This document shows, piece by piece, positions 7,121-22,869 of a stretch of DNA of 25,756 bases. Source of the stretch: a virus; IMG/VR virus record IMGVR_UViG_3300028025_000684, positions 1-25,756 of that record. One strand, 5' to 3'. Every line of letters starts with the position of its first letter. Position 1 is the first letter of the stretch. The translations under genes and the position numbers were made by a program. The notes under the pieces were generated by a model. It saw only the letters and a list, made by a program, of their open reading frames with translations. It ran no database searches and had not been told where the DNA came from.

Positions 7121-8032
7121 ATGGCTATTTCACGCGCACAACTGCTGAAAGAGTTGCTCCCCGGTCTGAACGCTTTGTTCGGTATGGAGTATGCTCGTTA
7201 CGGCGAAGAACACAAAGAAATCTACGAAACAGAGACTTCTGAGCGTTCATTCGAGGAAGAAACCAAGCTGTCCGGCTTTTCTGCCGCACCTGTCAAGAAC
7301 GAAGGCTCTGCCATCGCTTATGACAATGCGCAAGAAGCATGGTCAACCCGCTATACACACGAAACCATCGCCTTGGGTTTCTCAATCACTGAAGAAGCGA
7401 TTGAAGATAACTTGTACGACAGCTTGTCGTCACGTTACACCAAGTCATTGGCCCGTGCTATGGCTTACACCAAACAGGTCAAGGCTGCTGCCGTCCTGAA
7501 CAATGGCTTTAGCTCCAGCTACCCCGGTGGCGACGGCGTGTCTTTGTTCAACGCCAACCACCCATTGATCTCTGGTGGTGTCAACAGCAACACTCCCTCA
7601 ACCCAAGTTGATTTGAACGAGACTTCTTTGGAAGCCGCCGTTATTCAGATCGCCGCTTGGACAGACGAGCGTGGTTTGTTGATCGCAGCAAAACCCAAGA
7701 AGATGATTGTTCCCCCGAACTTGATGTTCGTCGCTAAACGCTTGTTGGACACCGAACTCCGTGTGTCTACTGCCGATAACGACATCAACGCCATCAAGCA
7801 AATGGGCGCAATCCCTGAAGGTTACGCTGTCAACCACTTCTTGACAGACACCAATGCTTGGTTCTTGACCACAGACGTGCCAAACGGTTTGAAGCACTTT
7901 GTTCGCTCCCCGCTGGCTAACAGCATGGACGGCGACTTCGACACCGGCAACGTCCGTTACAAGGCCCGTGAGCGTTACAGCTTCGGCTGGTCTGACCCTC
8001 TGGGCATGTGGGGTTCTTCAGGCACTGCCTGA
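7121..8032 (+). CDS. Major capsid protein (Mu gpT-like, HK97 fold expected)
   Basis: 303 aa, in the size range of Mu gpT-type capsid proteins. An acidic N-terminal region (about 20-55, ETETSERSFEEETKLSG) is followed by the body. Recognisable stretches include FSITEEAIEDNLYD (about 87-100), PKKMIVPPNLMFVAKRLLDT (about 190-209) and a C-terminal segment ending FGWSDPLGMWG. The combination resembles the phage Mu major head subunit family, whose members adopt the HK97 fold. GGAGCT lies upstream of the start. The gene follows scaffold in the usual order and is closed by a strong terminator, consistent with the most abundant virion protein. Confidence 0.88.
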   Translation: MAISRAQLLKELLPGLNALFGMEYARYGEEHKEIYETETSERSFEEETKLSGFSAAPVKNEGSAIAYDNAQEAWSTRYTHETIALGFSITEEAIEDNLYDSLSSRYTKSLARAMAYTKQVKAAAVLNNGFSSSYPGGDGVSLFNANHPLISGGVNSNTPSTQVDLNETSLEAAVIQIAAWTDERGLLIAAKPKKMIVPPNLMFVAKRLLDTELRVSTADNDINAIKQMGAIPEGYAVNHFLTDTNAWFLTTDVPNGLKHFVRSPLANSMDGDFDTGNVRYKARERYSFGWSDPLGMWGSSGTA

Positions 8033-8798: not shown

Positions 8799-9107
8799 AT
8801 GGGAATGCAAGCAGACATCCTAGCCAGTGCAATACGCACTGATGATGGTGTTTTAAACGACCAAGCTGGCAACGCAATTGGGCGGGCGCGTATCAAGGCT
8901 ATCCGCATCATTCCAACTGCTTCTACTGCTGGCACAGTGGTGTTCAAAGACGGCAGTGCAAGCGGCACTACACGCTTAACAGTCAATGTTTTTGCTGGCA
9001 CGACAGGGGCTGACTACATGTTGCTCCCCCATGAGGGCTTGCTGTTTAACTCTGGCATTTATGTTGACGTGACCACCATTGCGTCTGTCATGGTGTTCTA
9101 TGGCTAA
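8799..9107 (+). CDS. Small beta-rich structural protein, unknown
   Basis: 102 aa. ATG 8799 is chosen because AGGAG (8787-8791) lies seven bases upstream; the TTG at 8793 is too close. The sequence is rich in Thr, Ala, Gly, Val and Ile (for example IKAIRIIPTASTAGTVVF) and ends in hydrophobic strands (TTIASVMVFYG), consistent with a small beta-sandwich virion protein. It overlaps the next gene by eight bases. No motif allows a function call. Confidence 0.8.
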   Translation: MGMQADILASAIRTDDGVLNDQAGNAIGRARIKAIRIIPTASTAGTVVFKDGSASGTTRLTVNVFAGTTGADYMLLPHEGLLFNSGIYVDVTTIASVMVFYG

Positions 9108-9423
9108 ATCCCCCGCATGGCAGAGAGCGGAAGGGAAGAATCCCAAAGGCGGCTTGAACGCCAAAGGGCGAGCCTCCTACAACGCAGCAAATCCGGGGAA
9201 GCCGGGTCTGAAGCCTCCGCAGCCACAGGGCGGGAGCCGCCGCGACTCTTTCTGCGCACGTATGAAAGGCATGAAAGCGAAGCTTACGAGCGCCAAGACC
9301 GCAAACGATCCGGATTCGAGGATTAACAAGAGCCTTCGTGCATGGAACTGCGCAGATGGCGGGTACGTAACCAAAGCAGATGGCTGTGCCACCAAAGGCA
9401 AGACCAAAGGCAGGATGATCTGA
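9100..9423 (+). CDS. Small basic phage protein (DUF6321-like) with C-terminal ADGxAxxGKTxGxM tag
   Basis: 107 aa, highly basic. The N-terminal body with SPAWQRAEGKNPKGGLNAKG (4-23) and RRDSFCARMKGM resembles a conserved family of small phage proteins that I recall as DUF6321. After a natural end near SLRAWNC the protein carries an extra tail, DGGYV then TKADGCATKGKTKGRMI, which recurs at the C-termini of three of the next four proteins. The start ATG 9100 overlaps the previous gene; the longer frame from 9079 adds unrelated residues and has no better ribosome site. The stop overlaps the next ATG by one base (TGATG). Confidence 0.85.
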   Translation: MAKSPAWQRAEGKNPKGGLNAKGRASYNAANPGKPGLKPPQPQGGSRRDSFCARMKGMKAKLTSAKTANDPDSRINKSLRAWNCADGGYVTKADGCATKGKTKGRMI

Positions 9424-9662
9424 TGGACGTGAACACAATTTGGTCTGCAGCCTTGTCTTTGTTGATGGGTGGCTTGTGGTTTTTCATTCGGGAAAAGCTG
9501 GACGATGTCAAACGCATCGAGCGTCTTTTAAACATCACACGCGAGGAGATTGCCCGTGATACAGCAACTAAAGCAGAAGTGGCAAGAGTTACTGACCATA
9601 TTGATCAACGTTTCAACAAGCTGGAAGAAAAAATTGACCGGCTTCTTCAAGCGGGGAAATGA
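9423..9662 (+). CDS. Small membrane-anchored coiled-coil protein
   Basis: 79 aa. A single hydrophobic segment near the N-terminus (IWSAALSLLMGGLWFFI, about 6-22) is followed by a charged helical region with heptad-like spacing (KLDDVKRIERLLN and FNKLEEKIDRLLQ). The start ATG 9423 shares a base with the previous stop. One transmembrane helix plus a coiled coil is seen in phage membrane-associated proteins such as spanin-like or holin-accessory proteins, but this gene is far from the lysis region and may be a virion or ejected membrane protein. It is the only gene in the 9100-11160 run without the shared C-terminal tag. Confidence 0.82.
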   Translation: MDVNTIWSAALSLLMGGLWFFIREKLDDVKRIERLLNITREEIARDTATKAEVARVTDHIDQRFNKLEEKIDRLLQAGK

Positions 9663-10156
9663 TGCCAGCAACCAGTCTTAAACAAAAGAAATTCATGGAT
9701 GCTGCGGCGCACAACCCAGCATTTGCGAAGCAGGCGGGTGTCCCGCAAAAGGTGGCAAAAGACTTCAGCAGCGCCAGCAAGGGCATGAAGTTTGGTAGCG
9801 GGGCAAAGACCCGCGCAGATTCGCAGAAGGTCAACAATCCTAAAACCAATCAAGGTAAGCAGGAACTTTTCAAAAGGGGTGGGGAAATGAAAGAATCAAA
9901 AGCAATGGTCAAAAAAGAAGTCAGCTTTATGAAAGCCAAAGGCGCTCCCAAGTCTATGGTCAAGCATGAAATGAAAGAAGCTGGCATGAAGAAAATGGCA
10001 AATGGTGGCATCACCAAAGCCAAGATGGGTTCTGTGAAAACAGCCGCCCCAAGCCGTGACGGTCTTGCTTCAAAAGGCAAAACCAAAGGCGCAATGGTCA
10101 AGATGTCTGGCTCTAAGCCATTGGGCATGAACAAGGGCGGCAAAGCCTACTGCTAA
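9659..10156 (+). CDS. Lysine-rich virion-region protein with tag motif near the C-terminus
   Basis: 165 aa, strongly basic. The N-terminal segment PATSLKQKKFMDAAAHNPAF (3-22) resembles small DUF3008-type phage proteins. The middle repeats a charged pattern (MKESKAMVKKEVSFMKAKG, then SMVKHEMKEAGMKKMANGG), likely helical. The tag appears as SRDGLASKGKTKGAMV and is followed by about 20 further Gly/Lys residues, so here it is not at the extreme end. It starts inside the stop of the previous gene. Basicity suggests nucleic-acid contact or packaging within the virion, which is inference. Confidence 0.82.
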   Translation: MMPATSLKQKKFMDAAAHNPAFAKQAGVPQKVAKDFSSASKGMKFGSGAKTRADSQKVNNPKTNQGKQELFKRGGEMKESKAMVKKEVSFMKAKGAPKSMVKHEMKEAGMKKMANGGITKAKMGSVKTAAPSRDGLASKGKTKGAMVKMSGSKPLGMNKGGKAYC

Positions 10157-10168
10157 AAGGAGCCGATC

Positions 10169-10921
10169 ATGGCAAAGAATGTTGGAAGATTGGCTGGTCT
10201 TGCTGCGCTTGCGGGCGCAGCTTACATGATGACTAGGGGTAAGGGTAAGTCTGATGACGCAGGCGACCAAACAACAAGCTCTTACACCAAAGACACCAAA
10301 AAAGTTGGGTCAGATGGGGTTCCGTTAAAAACACAGGCGCAAAGCATTGCTGAAGCGGACAAGTCAGTTGGTTCTGGCCCTTCTCCTAATTCACAGCAGC
10401 CATCTGGCGTTCTTACCCAAGGAACGGATAAGTCTGCGGTGGATTTAAACGCAAACCGTAATCAGCCTGCCAAGCCTGCGCCTGCGCCTGTTGTTAACCC
10501 TGCACCTGTACCCAAACTCGTTTCCCAGCCAAGTGACAAAAGAGTCACGCTTTCGTCTGATGCCGCCGTTTTAGAGGCGCTAAACAGTCGCGGCAATCGG
10601 TCTGTAAAAAATGACAACTATAGCAATGAGGGGCGAAGCAGCATACTCGCTGCCAAGAAAAAACAAATCCCAGTGCTGCCTCTTGGTTCAAGTGATACCA
10701 AGACATACGATCGGAAACAGGGAGCCACAGCGAGTGGAATTGACACTTATAGAAAAGAGCAAGAGGAAAAAGAACGCATCAAAAAGCTGCAAGCTTCTGG
10801 TGGTCGCCGGGCTTCTGGTGGCGCGGTCAAAACTAAAAATATGGCTTCTGGTGGCATGACAGCTTCCAGCCGTGCTGACGGGATTGCATCCCGTGGCAAA
10901 ACCCGCTGCAAAATGTATTGA
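10169..10921 (+). CDS. Ala/Pro/Lys-rich protein with hydrophobic N-terminus and C-terminal tag
   Basis: 250 aa. A positive N-terminus and short hydrophobic stretch (LAGLAALAGAAYMM, about 8-21) could be a membrane segment or signal-anchor. A long low-complexity, probably disordered region follows (30-130, rich in Ser, Gln, Asn, Pro, including PAKPAPAPVVNPAPVP), then charged helices near 185-205. The end carries MASGG and the tag SRADGIASRGKTRCKMY; here Cys replaces the Gly seen in the other tags. AAAGGAG lies upstream of the ATG. Composition fits an ejected or internal virion protein, but this is not demonstrated. Confidence 0.82.
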   Translation: MAKNVGRLAGLAALAGAAYMMTRGKGKSDDAGDQTTSSYTKDTKKVGSDGVPLKTQAQSIAEADKSVGSGPSPNSQQPSGVLTQGTDKSAVDLNANRNQPAKPAPAPVVNPAPVPKLVSQPSDKRVTLSSDAAVLEALNSRGNRSVKNDNYSNEGRSSILAAKKKQIPVLPLGSSDTKTYDRKQGATASGIDTYRKEQEEKERIKKLQASGGRRASGGAVKTKNMASGGMTASSRADGIASRGKTRCKMY

Positions 10922-10929
10922 GGTGAATC

Positions 10930-11160
10930 ATGTTTGACGATCTGGAAAAGAACAAAGAAGCGCCAAAAGACATTGACGGCGCTTCCGCCGGTCGCAAGTT
11001 CAAGAAGAATGAGCCGGGTATGCCTGAGCAGCCCGGTCAAGACATTCGTGTTGACGGCAAGCCCGTGAAGCCAGCAAAGAAAATGGCTTCTGGCGGCTCT
11101 GCTTCCAGTCGTGCTGATGGATGCGCACAGCGTGGCAAGACTCGTGGGACGATGATCTGA
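10930..11160 (+). CDS. 76-aa basic protein ending in the shared tag
   Basis: The first half is charged and disordered-looking (DDLEKNKEAPKDIDG; KPVKPAKK), and the final third is MASGG followed by SRADGCAQRGKTRGTMI, the clearest form of the tag. It is close in DNA sequence to the end of the 9100 gene, and both finish with the same GATGATCTGATGG junction into the next gene. Small size and lack of a folded core suggest the tag itself may be the functional part. AGGTG upstream of the ATG is a modest ribosome site. Confidence 0.82.
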   Translation: MFDDLEKNKEAPKDIDGASAGRKFKKNEPGMPEQPGQDIRVDGKPVKPAKKMASGGSASSRADGCAQRGKTRGTMI

Positions 11161-11438
11161 TGATGGCTTCTCGCGGCATGGGCGCAATCAACCCGAAGAA
11201 GATGCCGGGGAAGAAAGTCGTTCGCCGCAAAGATCAGCCACAGAATGTTGACATGTACGCCGAAGGCGGCGGTGTAAACGCTGCTGGCAACTACACCAAG
11301 CCCAGTTTGCGCAAGCGAATTGTGGCTCAGGTCAAGGCAGCAGCAACACATGGCACTGGCGCGGGTCAGTGGTCAGCACGTAAGGCGCAGCTTGTAGCCA
11401 AGAAATACAAAGCCGCAGGCGGAGGGTACAGAGATTGA
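11160..11438 (+). CDS. Small basic protein (conserved phage family, unnamed)
   Basis: 92 aa. It starts at ATG 11160 (or the adjacent ATG 11163), overlapping the previous stop. The C-terminal half contains NAAGNYTKPSLRKRIVAQVK and GQWSARKAQLVAKKYKAAGG, a pattern I recall from many phages and large algal viruses, with aromatic and basic residues suited to nucleic-acid or capsid contact. No function is known to me. It is translationally coupled on both sides. Confidence 0.85.
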   Translation: MMASRGMGAINPKKMPGKKVVRRKDQPQNVDMYAEGGGVNAAGNYTKPSLRKRIVAQVKAAATHGTGAGQWSARKAQLVAKKYKAAGGGYRD

Positions 11439-11668
11439 AAGCACCGCAGACTTCCCTTAAAAACTGGGGCGACCAGAAATGGCGTACCAAGTCGGGGAAG
11501 CCTTCGTCAAAAACAGGTGAGAGGTATCTCCCTGAAGCAGCAATCAAGTCTTTGTCGCCAGCGGAATACGCAGCTACAACCCGCGCAAAGCGGGCGGGCA
11601 AGAAGGCTGGCAAGCAGTTTGTGGCACAACCCAAGAGCATTGCAAAGAAAACGGCAGGATTTAGATAA
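11435..11668 (+). CDS. Small lysine-rich protein (DUF5872-like pattern)
   Basis: 77 aa, start TTG 11435 overlapping the previous stop (TTGA), with GGAGGG (11421-11426) eight bases upstream. The sequence has a KWRTKSGKPSSKTGERYLPE core (15-34) and a basic C-terminal part ending QPKSIAKKTAGFR. This pattern recurs in small phage and algal-virus proteins; I connect it loosely with DUF5872. Together with the upstream gene it may form a two-gene version of a protein that is fused elsewhere. It overlaps the connector gene by one base. Confidence 0.82.
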   Translation: MKAPQTSLKNWGDQKWRTKSGKPSSKTGERYLPEAAIKSLSPAEYAATTRAKRAGKKAGKQFVAQPKSIAKKTAGFR

Positions 11669-12594
11669 TGGCAAATACTTCCGGCGCATCAAGCTTTAAC
11701 CTTGACCTGACAGAACTTGTCGAGGAGGCGTTTGAACGCGCCGGTGGTGAGCTGCGCACCGGTTATGACCTTCGTACAGCCCGCCGCAGTTTAAACATCA
11801 TGTTTGCCGACTGGGCAAACCGTGGCATCAATCTGTGGACAATTGAGCAAGGCACGATCGACCTTGTCCAAGGCCAGAATACCTACCCGCTGCCCAACGA
11901 CACCATTGACCTGCTGGAGCATGTGATCCGCACGGGAGCGAACATATCTTCGACTCAGGCTGACCTGACCATTACCCGTATCAGTGTTTCCACCTACGCA
12001 ACGATCCCCAACAAGATCACGCAAGCCAGACCCATTCAAATCTGGATTCAGCGGTACAACGGACAGACCTCGCCGACAGGGTTAACCCTTGACGGGGCAA
12101 TCACAAGTTCATCTACCCAGATCACACTGGACTCTGCGGTTGGCCTGCCAGCCGCTGGGTTTGTGAAGATCGACAATGAAATCATCAATTACGGGTACAT
12201 AGAGGGAAATGTCCTCTACAACTGCTTCCGTGGACAGCAAAACACCACGGCGGCAAGCCACACAGACAACACCGCTGTTTATTGGGAGCAGGTTCCCGCT
12301 GTAACCGTCTGGCCCACGCCAGACAATGCCCAGACCTACCAATTGGTTTATTGGCGTTTACGCCGCACGCAAGACGCTGGAGGCGGTGTAAACATCATGG
12401 ACGTACCTTTCCGCTTCCTGCCCTGTATGGCGGCTGGATTGTCGTACTACATCGCTGGAAAGATACCTACTGGCGCAGAGCGCCTTGGCTTCCTGAAAGC
12501 CCAGTATGACGAGGCTTGGGAACTAGCCGCCTACGAAGATCATGAGAAAGCAGCCTTGAGACTTGTACCCCGTCAGACCTACATTGGGAGGTAA
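11668..12594 (+). CDS. Head-tail connector, P22 gp4-like (tail accessory factor)
   Basis: 308 aa. gp4-type proteins bind under the portal and close the packaged head. The helical N-terminus (LTELVEEAFERAGGELRTGY, 14-33; LRTARRSLNIMFADWANRGI, 35-54) and the C-terminal region (NAQTYQLVYWRLRRTQDAGG; PFRFLPCMAAGLSYYIAGK; PRQTYIGR) match the family as I know it. Between about 130 and 200 a beta-rich insert (SSSTQITLDSAVGLPAAGFV, then a DNEIINYGYIEGN-type segment) is an added domain, since P22 gp4 is only about 166 aa. ATG 11668 overlaps the previous stop; AGGA lies eight bases upstream. Confidence 0.85.
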   Translation: MANTSGASSFNLDLTELVEEAFERAGGELRTGYDLRTARRSLNIMFADWANRGINLWTIEQGTIDLVQGQNTYPLPNDTIDLLEHVIRTGANISSTQADLTITRISVSTYATIPNKITQARPIQIWIQRYNGQTSPTGLTLDGAITSSSTQITLDSAVGLPAAGFVKIDNEIINYGYIEGNVLYNCFRGQQNTTAASHTDNTAVYWEQVPAVTVWPTPDNAQTYQLVYWRLRRTQDAGGGVNIMDVPFRFLPCMAAGLSYYIAGKIPTGAERLGFLKAQYDEAWELAAYEDHEKAALRLVPRQTYIGR

Positions 12595-12596
12595 GG

Positions 12597-13022
12597 ATGG
12601 GTAACAGGTTTGCCAGTGGTAAGTTTGCGATTGCCCAGTGCGATCGCTGCGACCAGCGGTTCAAATTGAATATTCTCAAGACGGAGATCATCAAGACCAA
12701 GAATTACAACCTCTTGGTTTGCCCGGCTTGCTGGGATCCAGATCAGCCGCAGTTGCAGTTGGGCATGTTCCCGGTGGATGACCCGCAGGCTTTGAGAAAC
12801 CCAAGGCCAGACCGCAGTTATCTCTTGTCCGGTACAAGCGGATTGCAGATTGTGCCGACAGGCAGTGGCCCGTTGGGTACAGGGACGGTGGAAGGTGGCA
12901 GTCGAATCTTCCAGTGGGGATGGAATCCAGTGGGTGGATCAAGAGCAAATGACGATGGTTTAACGCCAAACAATTTGGTTTTGACAGTGGAACTTGGTAC
13001 AGTATCAGTTACAACGACATAA
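12597..13022 (+). CDS. Zinc-ribbon-containing virion-region protein
   Basis: 141 aa. Two CxxC knuckles (C15/C18 in CDRC and C42/C45 in CPAC) are separated by 23 residues and are likely to bind zinc. A conserved-looking WDPDQPQLQLGMFPVDDPQA segment follows (46-65), then a Gly/Ser-rich tail. GGGAGG just upstream gives a strong ribosome site two bases after the connector stop. Position next to the gp4-like gene suggests a head-completion role. Zinc ribbons also occur in DNA-binding proteins, so this is uncertain. Confidence 0.85.
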   Translation: MGNRFASGKFAIAQCDRCDQRFKLNILKTEIIKTKNYNLLVCPACWDPDQPQLQLGMFPVDDPQALRNPRPDRSYLLSGTSGLQIVPTGSGPLGTGTVEGGSRIFQWGWNPVGGSRANDDGLTPNNLVLTVELGTVSVTTT

Positions 13023-13032
13023 GGAGTCGATG

Positions 13033-13194
13033 ATGGACGCAAAGAAAGCAGTTCGCAAACACGAACAAAACATGCACCCCGGTCAAAAGCCAACCAAACT
13101 TCGCGCTGGCGGCAAGACCAACAGCGACATGCTCAAGTATGGTCGCAACATGGCAAAGATTATGAATCAGCGTAGCTCTGGCAGAGGTAAATAA
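13033..13194 (+). CDS. 53-aa basic protein, unknown
   Basis: Very small and basic. It begins MDAKKAVRKHEQNMHPGQKP and ends KYGRNMAKIMNQRSSGRGK. ATG 13033 is six bases after AAGGAG (13021-13026), better than ATG 13030 in the same frame at three bases. Similar small proteins recur next to connector genes in related phages as I recall. No function is known; nucleic-acid contact is plausible from charge. Confidence 0.78.
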   Translation: MDAKKAVRKHEQNMHPGQKPTKLRAGGKTNSDMLKYGRNMAKIMNQRSSGRGK

Positions 13195-13195
13195 C

Positions 13196-13396
13196 ATGGC
13201 AACATACAAAGTACCCAAGAAGGTTGCGACTGTTGTTGTGGGCGAAGAGCCAGCAAAAGAAACGATGCGTAAAGCAAACGTGTCTGTTGCCAACGTACGC
13301 AGCCAAGACTACCCTCCCACCAAGACCAGCGGCATCAAAATCCGTGGTACTGGCGCAGCCACTAAAGGCGTGATGGCACGAGGCCCGATGGCATGA
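13196..13396 (+). CDS. 66-aa protein with TKTSGIKIRGTGAATKG motif, unknown
   Basis: It begins with a short beta-like stretch (VPKKVATVVVGEE) and ends with TSGIKIRGTGAATKGVMARG, a Gly-rich basic tail reminiscent of, but distinct from, the GKTxGxM tag upstream. AGGTAA before the ATG is a fair ribosome site. Its stop overlaps the adaptor gene start (ATGA). The C-terminal pattern is one I recall from small phage proteins of unknown role. Confidence 0.8.
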   Translation: MATYKVPKKVATVVVGEEPAKETMRKANVSVANVRSQDYPPTKTSGIKIRGTGAATKGVMARGPMA

Positions 13397-16895: not shown

Positions 16896-17366
16896 ATGGC
16901 TTTTGTACTTGCAGACCGAGTTAAAGAGACAACCACCACGGCTGGTACGGGAACGGTGACGTTGCTTGGTGCATCGACTGGGTATCAATCCTTCTCTGCC
17001 ATCGGTAATGGAAACACCACTTATTACACCATTGCTGGTCAGACCGGATCAGAGTGGGAAGTTGGGATTGGTACATACACCTCATCCGGCACAACGCTTG
17101 CCAGAACCACGGTAATTTCATCCAGCAACGCTGGATCGTTGGTTAACTTTAGCGCAGGTACAAAGGACGTGTTTGTCACCTACCCCGCAGAATTTACAGC
17201 TAACGCTATTGGCGGCGGTGTTGGTGCAGTGCTTCTTAACGCTACTACTGCTACTGCAAGCGGAACGATTGCCACAGGCCAGAATGGTTTCACTGTTGGC
17301 CCATTAACAATTAACAGCGGCGTGACGATCACAATTGCTTCTGGACAAAGGCACGTAATCATATGA
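16896..17366 (+). CDS. Tail-fibre-region structural protein (conserved FVLADRVKETTTT start)
   Basis: 156 aa. It starts FVLADRVKETTTTAGTGTVT (3-22), then QSFSAIGNGNTTYYTI and EWEVGIGTYTSSGTTLART, a domain I recall at the start of many phage fibre or fibre-associated proteins. The last 45 residues are Thr/Ala/Gly-rich. A beta-sandwich fold is likely. AAGGA lies upstream of the ATG; the stop overlaps the next start (ATGA). It may be the base to which the next gene product attaches. Confidence 0.85.
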   Translation: MAFVLADRVKETTTTAGTGTVTLLGASTGYQSFSAIGNGNTTYYTIAGQTGSEWEVGIGTYTSSGTTLARTTVISSSNAGSLVNFSAGTKDVFVTYPAEFTANAIGGGVGAVLLNATTATASGTIATGQNGFTVGPLTINSGVTITIASGQRHVII

Positions 17367-21341: not shown

Positions 21342-21757
21342 TGAAACAAGCCTTGATTTCAACTATTGAACCGTGTGAAACAGGTTATCGTGTAGCGCAG
21401 GTTGTTGCAGAAGGTGAAACATTTCCTGTTGCTACAGACTTTTTTTGGGCTGCCTGCGCAGATGATGTAGTCCAAGATAAATTTTGGTATGACCCGCAAG
21501 ATCAAACTACGCACATTAAAGAGATACCCCCACATATCCCAACAGCGGAAGAAAATAAATCTACAGCTATGGGGTATTTAGCATCCACAGATTGGGTAAA
21601 TCAGCCAGATGTCACTAACCCTGACATCAATCCACATCTGCTTAATTATGCAGAATTTATTACTTATCGCAGTCAAATTCGTGCAATTGCAATTAACCCA
21701 ACTGCGGGTTTTTTGATTTGGCCCACGGAACCGATTTCTCAATGGAGTAGTGTTTAA
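21341..21757 (+). CDS. Tail fibre assembly-like protein
   Basis: 138 aa. The N-terminal half (MKQALISTIEPCETGYRVAQ; FFWAACADDVVQDKFWYDPQ) looks globular; the C-terminal half has LASTDWVNQPDVTNPDINPH and FITYRSQIRAIAINPTAG, the pattern of XkdW-like or T4 gp38-like fibre assembly proteins (a TDW motif followed by YRxxIR). Its place right after an adhesin supports a chaperone that helps trimerise or attach it. Base composition is slightly more AT-rich than the head genes. Confidence 0.82.
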   Translation: MKQALISTIEPCETGYRVAQVVAEGETFPVATDFFWAACADDVVQDKFWYDPQDQTTHIKEIPPHIPTAEENKSTAMGYLASTDWVNQPDVTNPDINPHLLNYAEFITYRSQIRAIAINPTAGFLIWPTEPISQWSSV

Positions 21758-22869
21758 TGTGCGATCAACTCAGTCAGTTTGTTGTTGAAAAATATGTTCA
21801 CTTCAAGGACTTCCTTGACAAGGATAACTGCCGTGAGTTGACCAACGAACTTAAGCGATTGGTTGCAGAACAAAAAACTGTCAAAGACGATCAATGCCCT
21901 GTATCTGAAGCGGTGCATGGCGCAATGGCATTTGATAAATTGCTGGTTGACCTGTTACCGCACTTTGAAAAAACAAGCGGCAAACGGCTTTATCCCACTT
22001 ACAGCTACGCTCGTTTGTATTCACCCGGTGAAGAGCTTGTCATTCACACTGATCGCGCGTCTTGCGAAATCAGTGCAACGTTGACCCTTGGTTTTGAAGG
22101 CGATGTATGGCCTATTTTCTTGGGTGACAAAGGAGGCGCAAATGCTTCTGAAATCAAAATGTCTGTGGGCGACGCTGTTCTTTATCGTGGTATGGAGAAG
22201 TACCATTGGCGTAATAAATACACTGAAGGCAAATGGCAAGCACAAGTGTTTTTGCATTATGTTGATGCCGATGGCCCACATAAAGAGTGGAAGTTTGATA
22301 AACGTACTGGTTTAAATTTGCCGCAAGAAGAATTGCGCTATCGAGTATTTCAAGATATTCTTACACCGGAAGCTTGTGATTCTTTGATTCGTTTGTACAC
22401 CAGCGACAAAACAGAAAAGCAACCTCCCGTAATCGGTACAGGCAAAGGCGCAATTAACAAAACAGTCCGAAATGTTGAGCGAGTTATGTTGCCGACATAC
22501 AAAGATATTGGCGGTCGTTTGGCGGCGGCGGGCTTATCTGCTAACTATCACAATTGGAAGTTTGATATTACTCATGCCAACCAAGCGGAGTTTTTGATTT
22601 ATCCAGCAGGCGGACGCTATCAGGCGCATGTGGATACATTTTTAAAACAAGGTGACGATTGCCGCAAGTTGACGGTGTTGGCGTTTTTGAACGATGACTT
22701 TAAAGGCGGCAAGTTTTTCATCCAAGACGGGCAGAATAAACACTACCCCCCGCAAACCAAAGGCACCGTGCTGGTCTTCCCTTCATTCATAATGCACGGC
22801 GTGGAAGACATTGAAGAAGGCCAACGGTGTTCTGTTGTGTGCTGGATGGTTGGTAAATTTTTTAAATAA
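21757..22869 (+). CDS. Two-domain 2-oxoglutarate/Fe(II)-dependent oxygenase
   Basis: 370 aa with two fused oxygenase domains. Domain 1 (about 1-175) has the iron ligands H97 and D99 (HTD) and H150 (KYHWR); the 2-oxoglutarate-binding basic residue expected about ten further on is only K159 or nothing, so this half may be degenerate. Domain 2 (about 195-370) is prolyl-4-hydroxylase-like and complete: H291 and D293 (HVD), H347 (MHGV) and R357 (GQRCS), with AEFLIYPAGGRYQAHVD leading in. The enzyme would hydroxylate a protein or small molecule using oxygen and 2-oxoglutarate. Location between fibre genes suggests a fibre or surface substrate. TAATG start overlap; AT-rich relative to the head genes. 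Confidence 0.92.
   Translation: MCDQLSQFVVEKYVHFKDFLDKDNCRELTNELKRLVAEQKTVKDDQCPVSEAVHGAMAFDKLLVDLLPHFEKTSGKRLYPTYSYARLYSPGEELVIHTDRASCEISATLTLGFEGDVWPIFLGDKGGANASEIKMSVGDAVLYRGMEKYHWRNKYTEGKWQAQVFLHYVDADGPHKEWKFDKRTGLNLPQEELRYRVFQDILTPEACDSLIRLYTSDKTEKQPPVIGTGKGAINKTVRNVERVMLPTYKDIGGRLAAAGLSANYHNWKFDITHANQAEFLIYPAGGRYQAHVDTFLKQGDDCRKLTVLAFLNDDFKGGKFFIQDGQNKHYPPQTKGTVLVFPSFIMHGVEDIEEGQRCSVVCWMVGKFFK

What the first reader, a model, noticed from the sequence alone, without database searches (positions are those of the whole stretch)
9361..11160. Four proteins from a run of five genes share a C-terminal tag
The genes at 9100, 9659, 10169 and 10930 end, or nearly end, in TKADGCATKGKTKGRMI, SRDGLASKGKTKGAMV, SRADGIASRGKTRCKMY and SRADGCAQRGKTRGTMI, mostly preceded by an A(S/N/D)GG element. 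The upstream bodies are unrelated to each other (a DUF6321-like body, a DUF3008-like body, a hydrophobic/disordered protein, a short disordered linker). A common tail on unrelated neighbours resembles a sorting or cargo-loading tag, for example for packing basic proteins into the head beside the DNA, or a shared processing site. Function is inferred; the shared motif is directly visible.
Basis: partly seen in the sequence, partly recalled or inferred. Interest (0 to 1): 0.75.

Follow-up and report, generated by a model that had tools for sequence, protein, structure and literature searches.

The report
Shared tail peptide on phage head-module proteins
Four otherwise unrelated small proteins of a freshwater phage end in the same short peptide, and over a hundred related phages put that peptide on more than a hundred different proteins made next to the capsid gene, so it looks like an undescribed shared docking (probably capsid-loading) tag, although nobody has yet tested what it binds.

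Summary
Four of five consecutive genes carry a C-terminal tag, GG-x(3-8)-RADG[IC]Ax[RK]GKT[RK]G[KR]M[VIC]. It usually ends exactly three residues before the stop. Every contig long enough to judge belongs to one podovirus-like lineage with a GpT-like capsid protein. In 18 long records nearly all tags lie in one short cassette between the capsid and adaptor genes. In 257 Gb of cellular genomes only four contigs carry a real tag; three are this phage lineage. The same DUF6321 body occurs with and without the tag, so it is a movable module. Gene ends reuse the last codons as the next gene's Shine-Dalgarno site, but internal tags keep the residues without that codon bias, so the peptide is selected as protein. 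A different tag (GCGKVMxxRRKxTK) replaces it in other members of the lineage. Best explanation: a disordered docking peptide that brings a hypervariable set of small basic proteins to one shared virion partner, working like the T4 capsid-targeting sequence. Virion location and partner are inferred, not shown.

The parts
9100..9423 (+). Tagged gene 1: DUF6321 body plus C-terminal tag (GGYVTKADGCATKGKTKGRMI)
   Evidence: Pfam DUF6321 E=7.4e-20; tag 9355-9420; same body mostly untagged in relatives
9355..9420 (+). Tag 1 of gene 1
9423..9662 (+). Untagged member of the run: small protein with hydrophobic N-terminus and likely coiled coil (phrog_462-like)
   Evidence: PHROG E=1.7e-6; homologs in 50 of 120 tag loci
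9659..10156 (+). Tagged gene 3: N-terminal helical domain (PHROG 16759; also N-terminus of virion proteins of jumbo phages), internal tag, GG-rich tail ending in Cys
10034..10099 (+). Tag of gene 3, 21 residues before the C-terminus
10169..10921 (+). Tagged gene 4: hydrophobic N-terminus (GRLAGLAALAGAAYMM), long disordered-looking body, C-terminal tag
   Evidence: similar proteins in 27 of 120 tag loci
10841..10915 (+). Tag of gene 4
10930..11160 (+). Tagged gene 5: short charged linker plus C-terminal tag
   Evidence: no family match
11083..11157 (+). Tag of gene 5
11160..11668 (+). Two small basic proteins that close the cassette (11160-11438, 11435-11668), conserved in 97 and 72 of 120 tag loci
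   Evidence: phrog_17747 and phrog_14910
7121..8032 (+). Major capsid protein, Mu gpT-like; upstream boundary of the cassette region
   Evidence: PF25209 E=3.3e-15, PF10124 4.4e-9; 74% identical to Pag-Yong1 capsid protein
11668..12594 (+). SU10-type adaptor; downstream boundary of the cassette
   Evidence: PF24175 E=3e-6
13196..13396 (+). Small protein with a related but different tail, RGTGAATKGVMARGPMA ('tag 3')

Best explanation
The shared sequence is a short linear docking tag. A GG-rich flexible linker presents the basic peptide RADG[IC]Ax[RK]GKT[RK]G[KR]M[VIC], which is unfolded on its own and is recognised by one conserved partner made by the phage, most likely a head component (capsid protein, scaffold, portal or adaptor). 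Any protein carrying the tag is thereby brought to the assembling particle, most likely inside the head, so the phage can swap bodies freely (hypervariable internal or accessory virion proteins) while keeping one address. Shown: tag identity, C-terminal position, movability, restriction to the head-module cassette and to one lineage, selection on the peptide. Inferred: existence and identity of the partner, virion location, delivery of the proteins.
For: About 261 tagged bodies in about 119 clusters share essentially only this peptide (mean column identity 7%; only G, G, G, G and T invariant). All testable loci belong to one lineage: 117 of 120 carry a head or adaptor homolog, and the three others are short fetched stretches that hold other genes of the lineage. 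In 18 long records, 2-6 tags each, nearly all in one cassette between capsid and adaptor genes, with gene order kept in 10 of 10. The DUF6321 body occurs tagged (15 rows) and untagged (47) with 6 label changes on the tree. L071 has three tags identical in DNA on different bodies. Internal tags keep the same residues without the Shine-Dalgarno codon bias of terminal tags. AlphaFold gives the tag a pLDDT of about 30-53 on both bodies tried, against better-folded bodies. Tandem tags occur. The gene-3 domain is the N-terminus of CBB_322, found in virions by mass spectrometry with 30 peptides and 43.6% coverage (PMC5259590). DUF6321 ends a T4-like cyanophage protein annotated 'structural'. Another tag replaces this one elsewhere in the lineage, partly in the same gene slot.
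Against: No virion proteomics exists for this lineage, no partner was identified, and no complex could be modelled. The tag is strongly basic, so nucleic-acid binding is possible. A few small proteins carry the core near the N-terminus (L028, L081, L117). Within-genome similarity of tags partly reflects DNA-level exchange (51% identical codons against 37% expected), so it does not show coevolution with a partner.
Confidence: 0.55

Rival explanations
1. The tag is a small nucleic-acid-binding tail: a conserved basic peptide that attaches the small basic proteins to phage DNA or RNA (genome condensation or protection), with no protein partner.
For: Tag carries 4-6 Lys/Arg; 79% of bodies have pI above 9, median 9.7; neighbours are small basic proteins.
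Against: Invariant Asp, Gly, Ala and Thr at fixed spacing and a fixed distance to the C-terminus point to shape-specific recognition; 12% of bodies have pI below 7.
Confidence: 0.17
2. The shared sequence is a nucleic-acid element (ribosome-binding and stop-start junction, or recombination joint) and the peptide is a by-product.
For: At gene ends, Gly+10 is GGA/GGG in 66% against 2-13% at the other two glycines; Arg+11 is AGR in 50% against 1-8% at the other Arg positions; 156 of 162 have a start codon overlapping or within 15 nt; identical tag DNA on three genes in L071.
Against: Internal tags keep the residues without that bias (8%); the DGxAx[KR]GKT core lies upstream of the Shine-Dalgarno part; codons in the tag core differ widely among the four window tags.
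Confidence: 0.06
3. The tag is a protease processing site or a degradation signal.
For: Prohead proteases and C-terminal degrons act on phage proteins in general (established knowledge).
Against: Usually only 3 residues follow it; no Mu-like (PF10123) or S78 (PF04586) prohead protease in 10 large records; a core of about 17 residues is far longer than known C-terminal degrons; tandem copies exist.
Confidence: 0.05
4. The tag addresses proteins to a host partner (membrane, transcription or protein-quality machinery) during late infection rather than to the particle.
For: Some bodies start with hydrophobic segments (gene 4 family); no virion data.
Against: Genes sit inside the capsid-to-adaptor block in every long record examined; two tagged bodies have relatives reported or annotated as virion structural proteins.
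Confidence: 0.12

Closest known systems
T4 capsid-targeting sequence (CTS) of internal proteins IPI-III and Alt
   Same: A short conserved peptide on a highly diverse set of small phage proteins encoded by one lineage; foreign proteins can be loaded with it (PMC3012670, PMC7411985).
   Different: CTS is N-terminal, about 10-20 residues, binds the prohead core and is removed by the gp21 protease; this tag is almost always C-terminal, uncleaved as far as can be told, basic, and no prohead protease of the two families tested was found.
Encapsulin cargo-loading (targeting) peptides, Family 1
   Same: Short C-terminal peptide that brings cargo into an HK97-fold shell; also known at N-termini of some cargo (PMC8346489).
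   Different: Different sequence (e.g. TVGSL motif); cargo are enzymes, shells are cellular compartments; shell binding is proven there, not here.
Sister tags in the same phage lineage: IA[RK]GCGKVMxxRRKxTKxx (tag 2) and RGTGAATKGxxARGPM[AG] (tag 3)
   Same: C-terminal, basic, often after a GG element, on several unrelated small bodies in the head module.
   Different: Different core; tag 2 usually on one protein per contig and never found together with tag 1; tag 3 mostly on one gene beside the second adaptor.

Membership tests
T4-type capsid-targeting sequence | Conserved peptide shared by diverse phage proteins | tested here: met
   about 119 body clusters; A4 alignment
T4-type capsid-targeting sequence | N-terminal position | tested here: not met
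   C-terminal in most; 169 of 275 exactly 3 residues from the end
T4-type capsid-targeting sequence | Removal by the prohead protease | tested here: inconclusive
   No PF10123 or PF04586 protease in 10 large records; other protease families not tested
T4-type capsid-targeting sequence | Brings proteins into the prohead | not testable with these tools
   Needs virion proteomics or reporter loading
Encapsulin cargo-loading peptide | Known targeting-peptide sequence (TVGSL-like) | tested here: not met
   Tag sequence has no such motif
Encapsulin cargo-loading peptide | Short C-terminal peptide after a flexible linker | tested here: met
   GG linker and C-terminal position; low pLDDT
Encapsulin cargo-loading peptide | Binds the inside of an HK97-fold shell | not testable with these tools
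   Capsid protein is GpT-like by Pfam, but binding is untested
P-loop (Walker A) | [AG]-x4-GK[ST] within a nucleotide-binding fold | tested here: not met
   The letters match, but Pag-Yong1 has GRT in place of GKT, the tag usually ends about 5 residues later, and it is predicted unfolded
DUF6321 (PF19846) | Domain match above the curated cut-off | tested here: met
   Gene 1, 71.8 bits against cut-off 28.5
DUF3008 | Pfam domain match | tested here: not met
   No match at E <= 1 for gene 3

The most novel reading that the evidence does not exclude
An undescribed, lineage-wide addressing system in abundant freshwater podovirus-like phages: one C-terminal peptide, copied from gene to gene together with its built-in ribosome-binding site, loads an open-ended and rapidly changing set of small proteins into the particle for delivery to the host, with other tag types used elsewhere in the same lineage.
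Probability: 0.35. Interest if true: 0.85.

Novelty: new variant of a known kind. Interest (0 to 1): 0.62.

Why it matters
It gives a testable handle on dozens of families of small proteins of unknown function in abundant aquatic phages: if the tag is a loading address, all of them become candidate virion-delivered proteins at once. It would be the C-terminal counterpart, on many more bodies, of the T4 internal-protein targeting sequence, and a ready-made peptide for loading foreign proteins into phage heads. The reuse of the tag's last codons as the next gene's ribosome-binding site is a neat example of layered coding that may ease plug-in of new genes.

Tried and rejected
tblastn of the tag alone or of gene 5 against INPHARED phages found nothing: too short for significance. 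Sequence and fold searches of PDB gave no relative. Literature searches for the motif letters, DUF6321/DUF3008 and Pag-Yong1 found no relevant paper. Pfam, PHROG and PADLOC scans of 109 tagged representatives gave only one weak match each in Pfam and PHROG and none in PADLOC, so there is no sign of enzymatic or known defence bodies. Walker A reading rejected (see membership test). A coevolution test showed tags more alike within than between genomes, but the control showed excess codon identity too, so shared descent and exchange explain part of it and I do not use it as evidence for a partner. Genes 11160 and 11435 as tag readers: conserved in tag-1 phages and with no hits in tag-2 loci, but not found in Pag-Yong1, which has a tag-1-like protein, so not required. 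L132 (a 613-residue acyltransferase-like frame ending in the tag, at a contig end) is probably an assembly chimera. Eleven hits in cellular genomes: L125, L127 and L131 are phage contigs, L132 as above, and the rest are chance matches (mostly not in the right reading frame).

Full report
What is there. The window is a whole 25,756-base IMG/VR record. Its gene order is terminase, portal, GroES-like, scaffold-like, two small genes, GpT-like capsid protein, candidate cement proteins, then a run of small genes, then SU10-type adaptors and tail genes. Gene 5's tag finds the other three in its own record at E = 1e-6 to 2e-3 and nothing else. Gene 1 is DUF6321. Gene 3 is not matched by DUF3008, but its N-terminal domain is PHROG 16759, also the N-terminus of families called virion structural protein.

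How far it reaches. A degenerate DNA pattern for the core hit the 120-stretch limit in IMG/VR, often several times per contig, but only 11 places in 257 Gb of bacterial and archaeal genomes, of which only four hold a real tag (L125, L127 and L131 from this phage lineage, and L132, a probable chimera). About 275 tags were read out. Features not fixed by my pattern are conserved too: R at -2 (69%), S at -4 (69%), A at -5 (69%), M at +12 (56%), V/I/C at +13, and a stop codon exactly three residues after the core in 169 of 275. Bodies of 261 tagged proteins fall into 119 clusters, 95 of them single, at E < 1e-5. Since the bodies are short and low in complexity, 'unrelated' means not detectably related. 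An alignment of 109 representatives has a mean column identity of 7%, with only tag and GG positions invariant. None of Pfam, PHROGs or PADLOC gave a model for the tag, and the paper library held no mention of it.

Where it sits. 117 of 120 loci hold homologs of the window's head or adaptor genes; the other three are short fetched stretches with other genes of the lineage. In 18 long records a tag profile finds 2-6 tags each, grouped in one stretch of about 0.3-4.6 kb apart from a few weak hits. Synteny in ten of them is the same: terL, portal, GroES, scaffold, capsid protein, DUF6321, tagged genes, g11160, g11435, adaptor; one record also has a tag just beyond the first adaptor. The cultured Planktothrix phage Pag-Yong1 (capsid protein 74% identical) has one tagged protein in the same slot.

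It is a movable module selected as protein. The DUF6321 body ends untagged in 47 of 62 distinct rows and tagged in 15, with 6 changes on the tree. L071 carries three tags with identical DNA on different bodies, the identity running through the TAATG stop-start junction. The tag core uses different codons in the four window tags. At gene ends the last codons are biased to form a Shine-Dalgarno site for the next gene (GGA/GGG at Gly+10 in 66%, AGR at Arg+11 in 50%), while tags lying inside proteins keep the residues without the bias. So the nucleic-acid role is an overlay, not the cause. AlphaFold models of the two bodies tried give the tag low confidence (pLDDT about 30-53) and the body better confidence, as expected of a peptide that folds on a partner.

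What it probably does. Position in the head block, lack of a fold, diversity of bodies and constancy of the tag fit a docking address read by a virion protein. Two bodies have relatives tied to virions: CBB_322, whose N-terminus is the gene-3 domain, was found by mass spectrometry in virions (PMC5259590; sequence), and DUF6321 forms the C-terminus of T4-GC0119, annotated as structural in cyanophage S-P4 (annotation only). [quoted passage not shown] This tag differs in being C-terminal and apparently uncleaved. The partner is unknown.

A second and a third tag. Other relatives, including phage 023Pt_psg01 from seawater, carry instead IA[RK]GCGKVMxxRRKxTKxx at the C-terminus (2 residues left in 104 of 119) on 14 body clusters, never together with tag 1 in the loci read, and often in the same capsid-to-adaptor slot. 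RGTGAATKGxxARGPM ends the window's 13196-13396 gene and several other bodies. This makes 'shared address on variable head-module proteins' look like a habit of the lineage.

Limits. Collection scans were capped, so counts are lower bounds. Contigs are metagenomic and may be fragments. No proteomics, binding data or complex modelling was available. Within-genome tag similarity is partly DNA exchange.

Noticed in passing
L156-L275 (e.g. L202, L206, L215); L140 near 17153-17350: A different C-terminal tag, IA[RK]GCGKVMxxRRKxTKxx, on at least 14 unrelated small bodies in relatives of this phage; never found together with the window's tag.
   Followed up: partly
window 13196-13396; L299, L313, L328, L336: Third recurring C-terminus RGTGAATKGxxARGPM, on the window gene beside the second adaptor and on unrelated bodies elsewhere.
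   Followed up: partly
L028, L081, L117; L151 12987-13194 (reverse-complement coordinates): Small proteins with the tag core near the N-terminus (e.g. MAFTKSADGIAAKGKTKGKNLGDSGP) and a C-terminus like window gene 12994-13194.
   Followed up: no
L071 (three tagged genes): Three tags with identical DNA, including the TAATG stop-start junction, on different bodies: recent copying of a tag.
   Followed up: yes
L138:8690-8956; L147:13385-13652: Dockerin/EF-hand-like loop DLTGDG(K/E)VT(K/Q)ADILKGRG in small basic head-module proteins; possible calcium-binding element.
   Followed up: no
L055:1154-1537: Gene-3-type domain fused directly to a DUF6321-like domain, showing that the small modules recombine.
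   Followed up: no
L137:7667-7918 (minus strand); L299: A body beginning MPLKKGS.QKTIS occurs with a KKKTKIY end in phage DSL-LC04 and with tag 3 in L299: same body type, different tail.
   Followed up: no
window 21757-22869: Fusion-like protein matching ferrochelatase-labelled and 2OG-Fe(II) oxygenase phage families.
   Followed up: no
L132 (Patulibacter MAG contig end): Membrane acyltransferase-like frame ending in a perfect tag at the contig end; probably an assembly chimera.
   Followed up: partly
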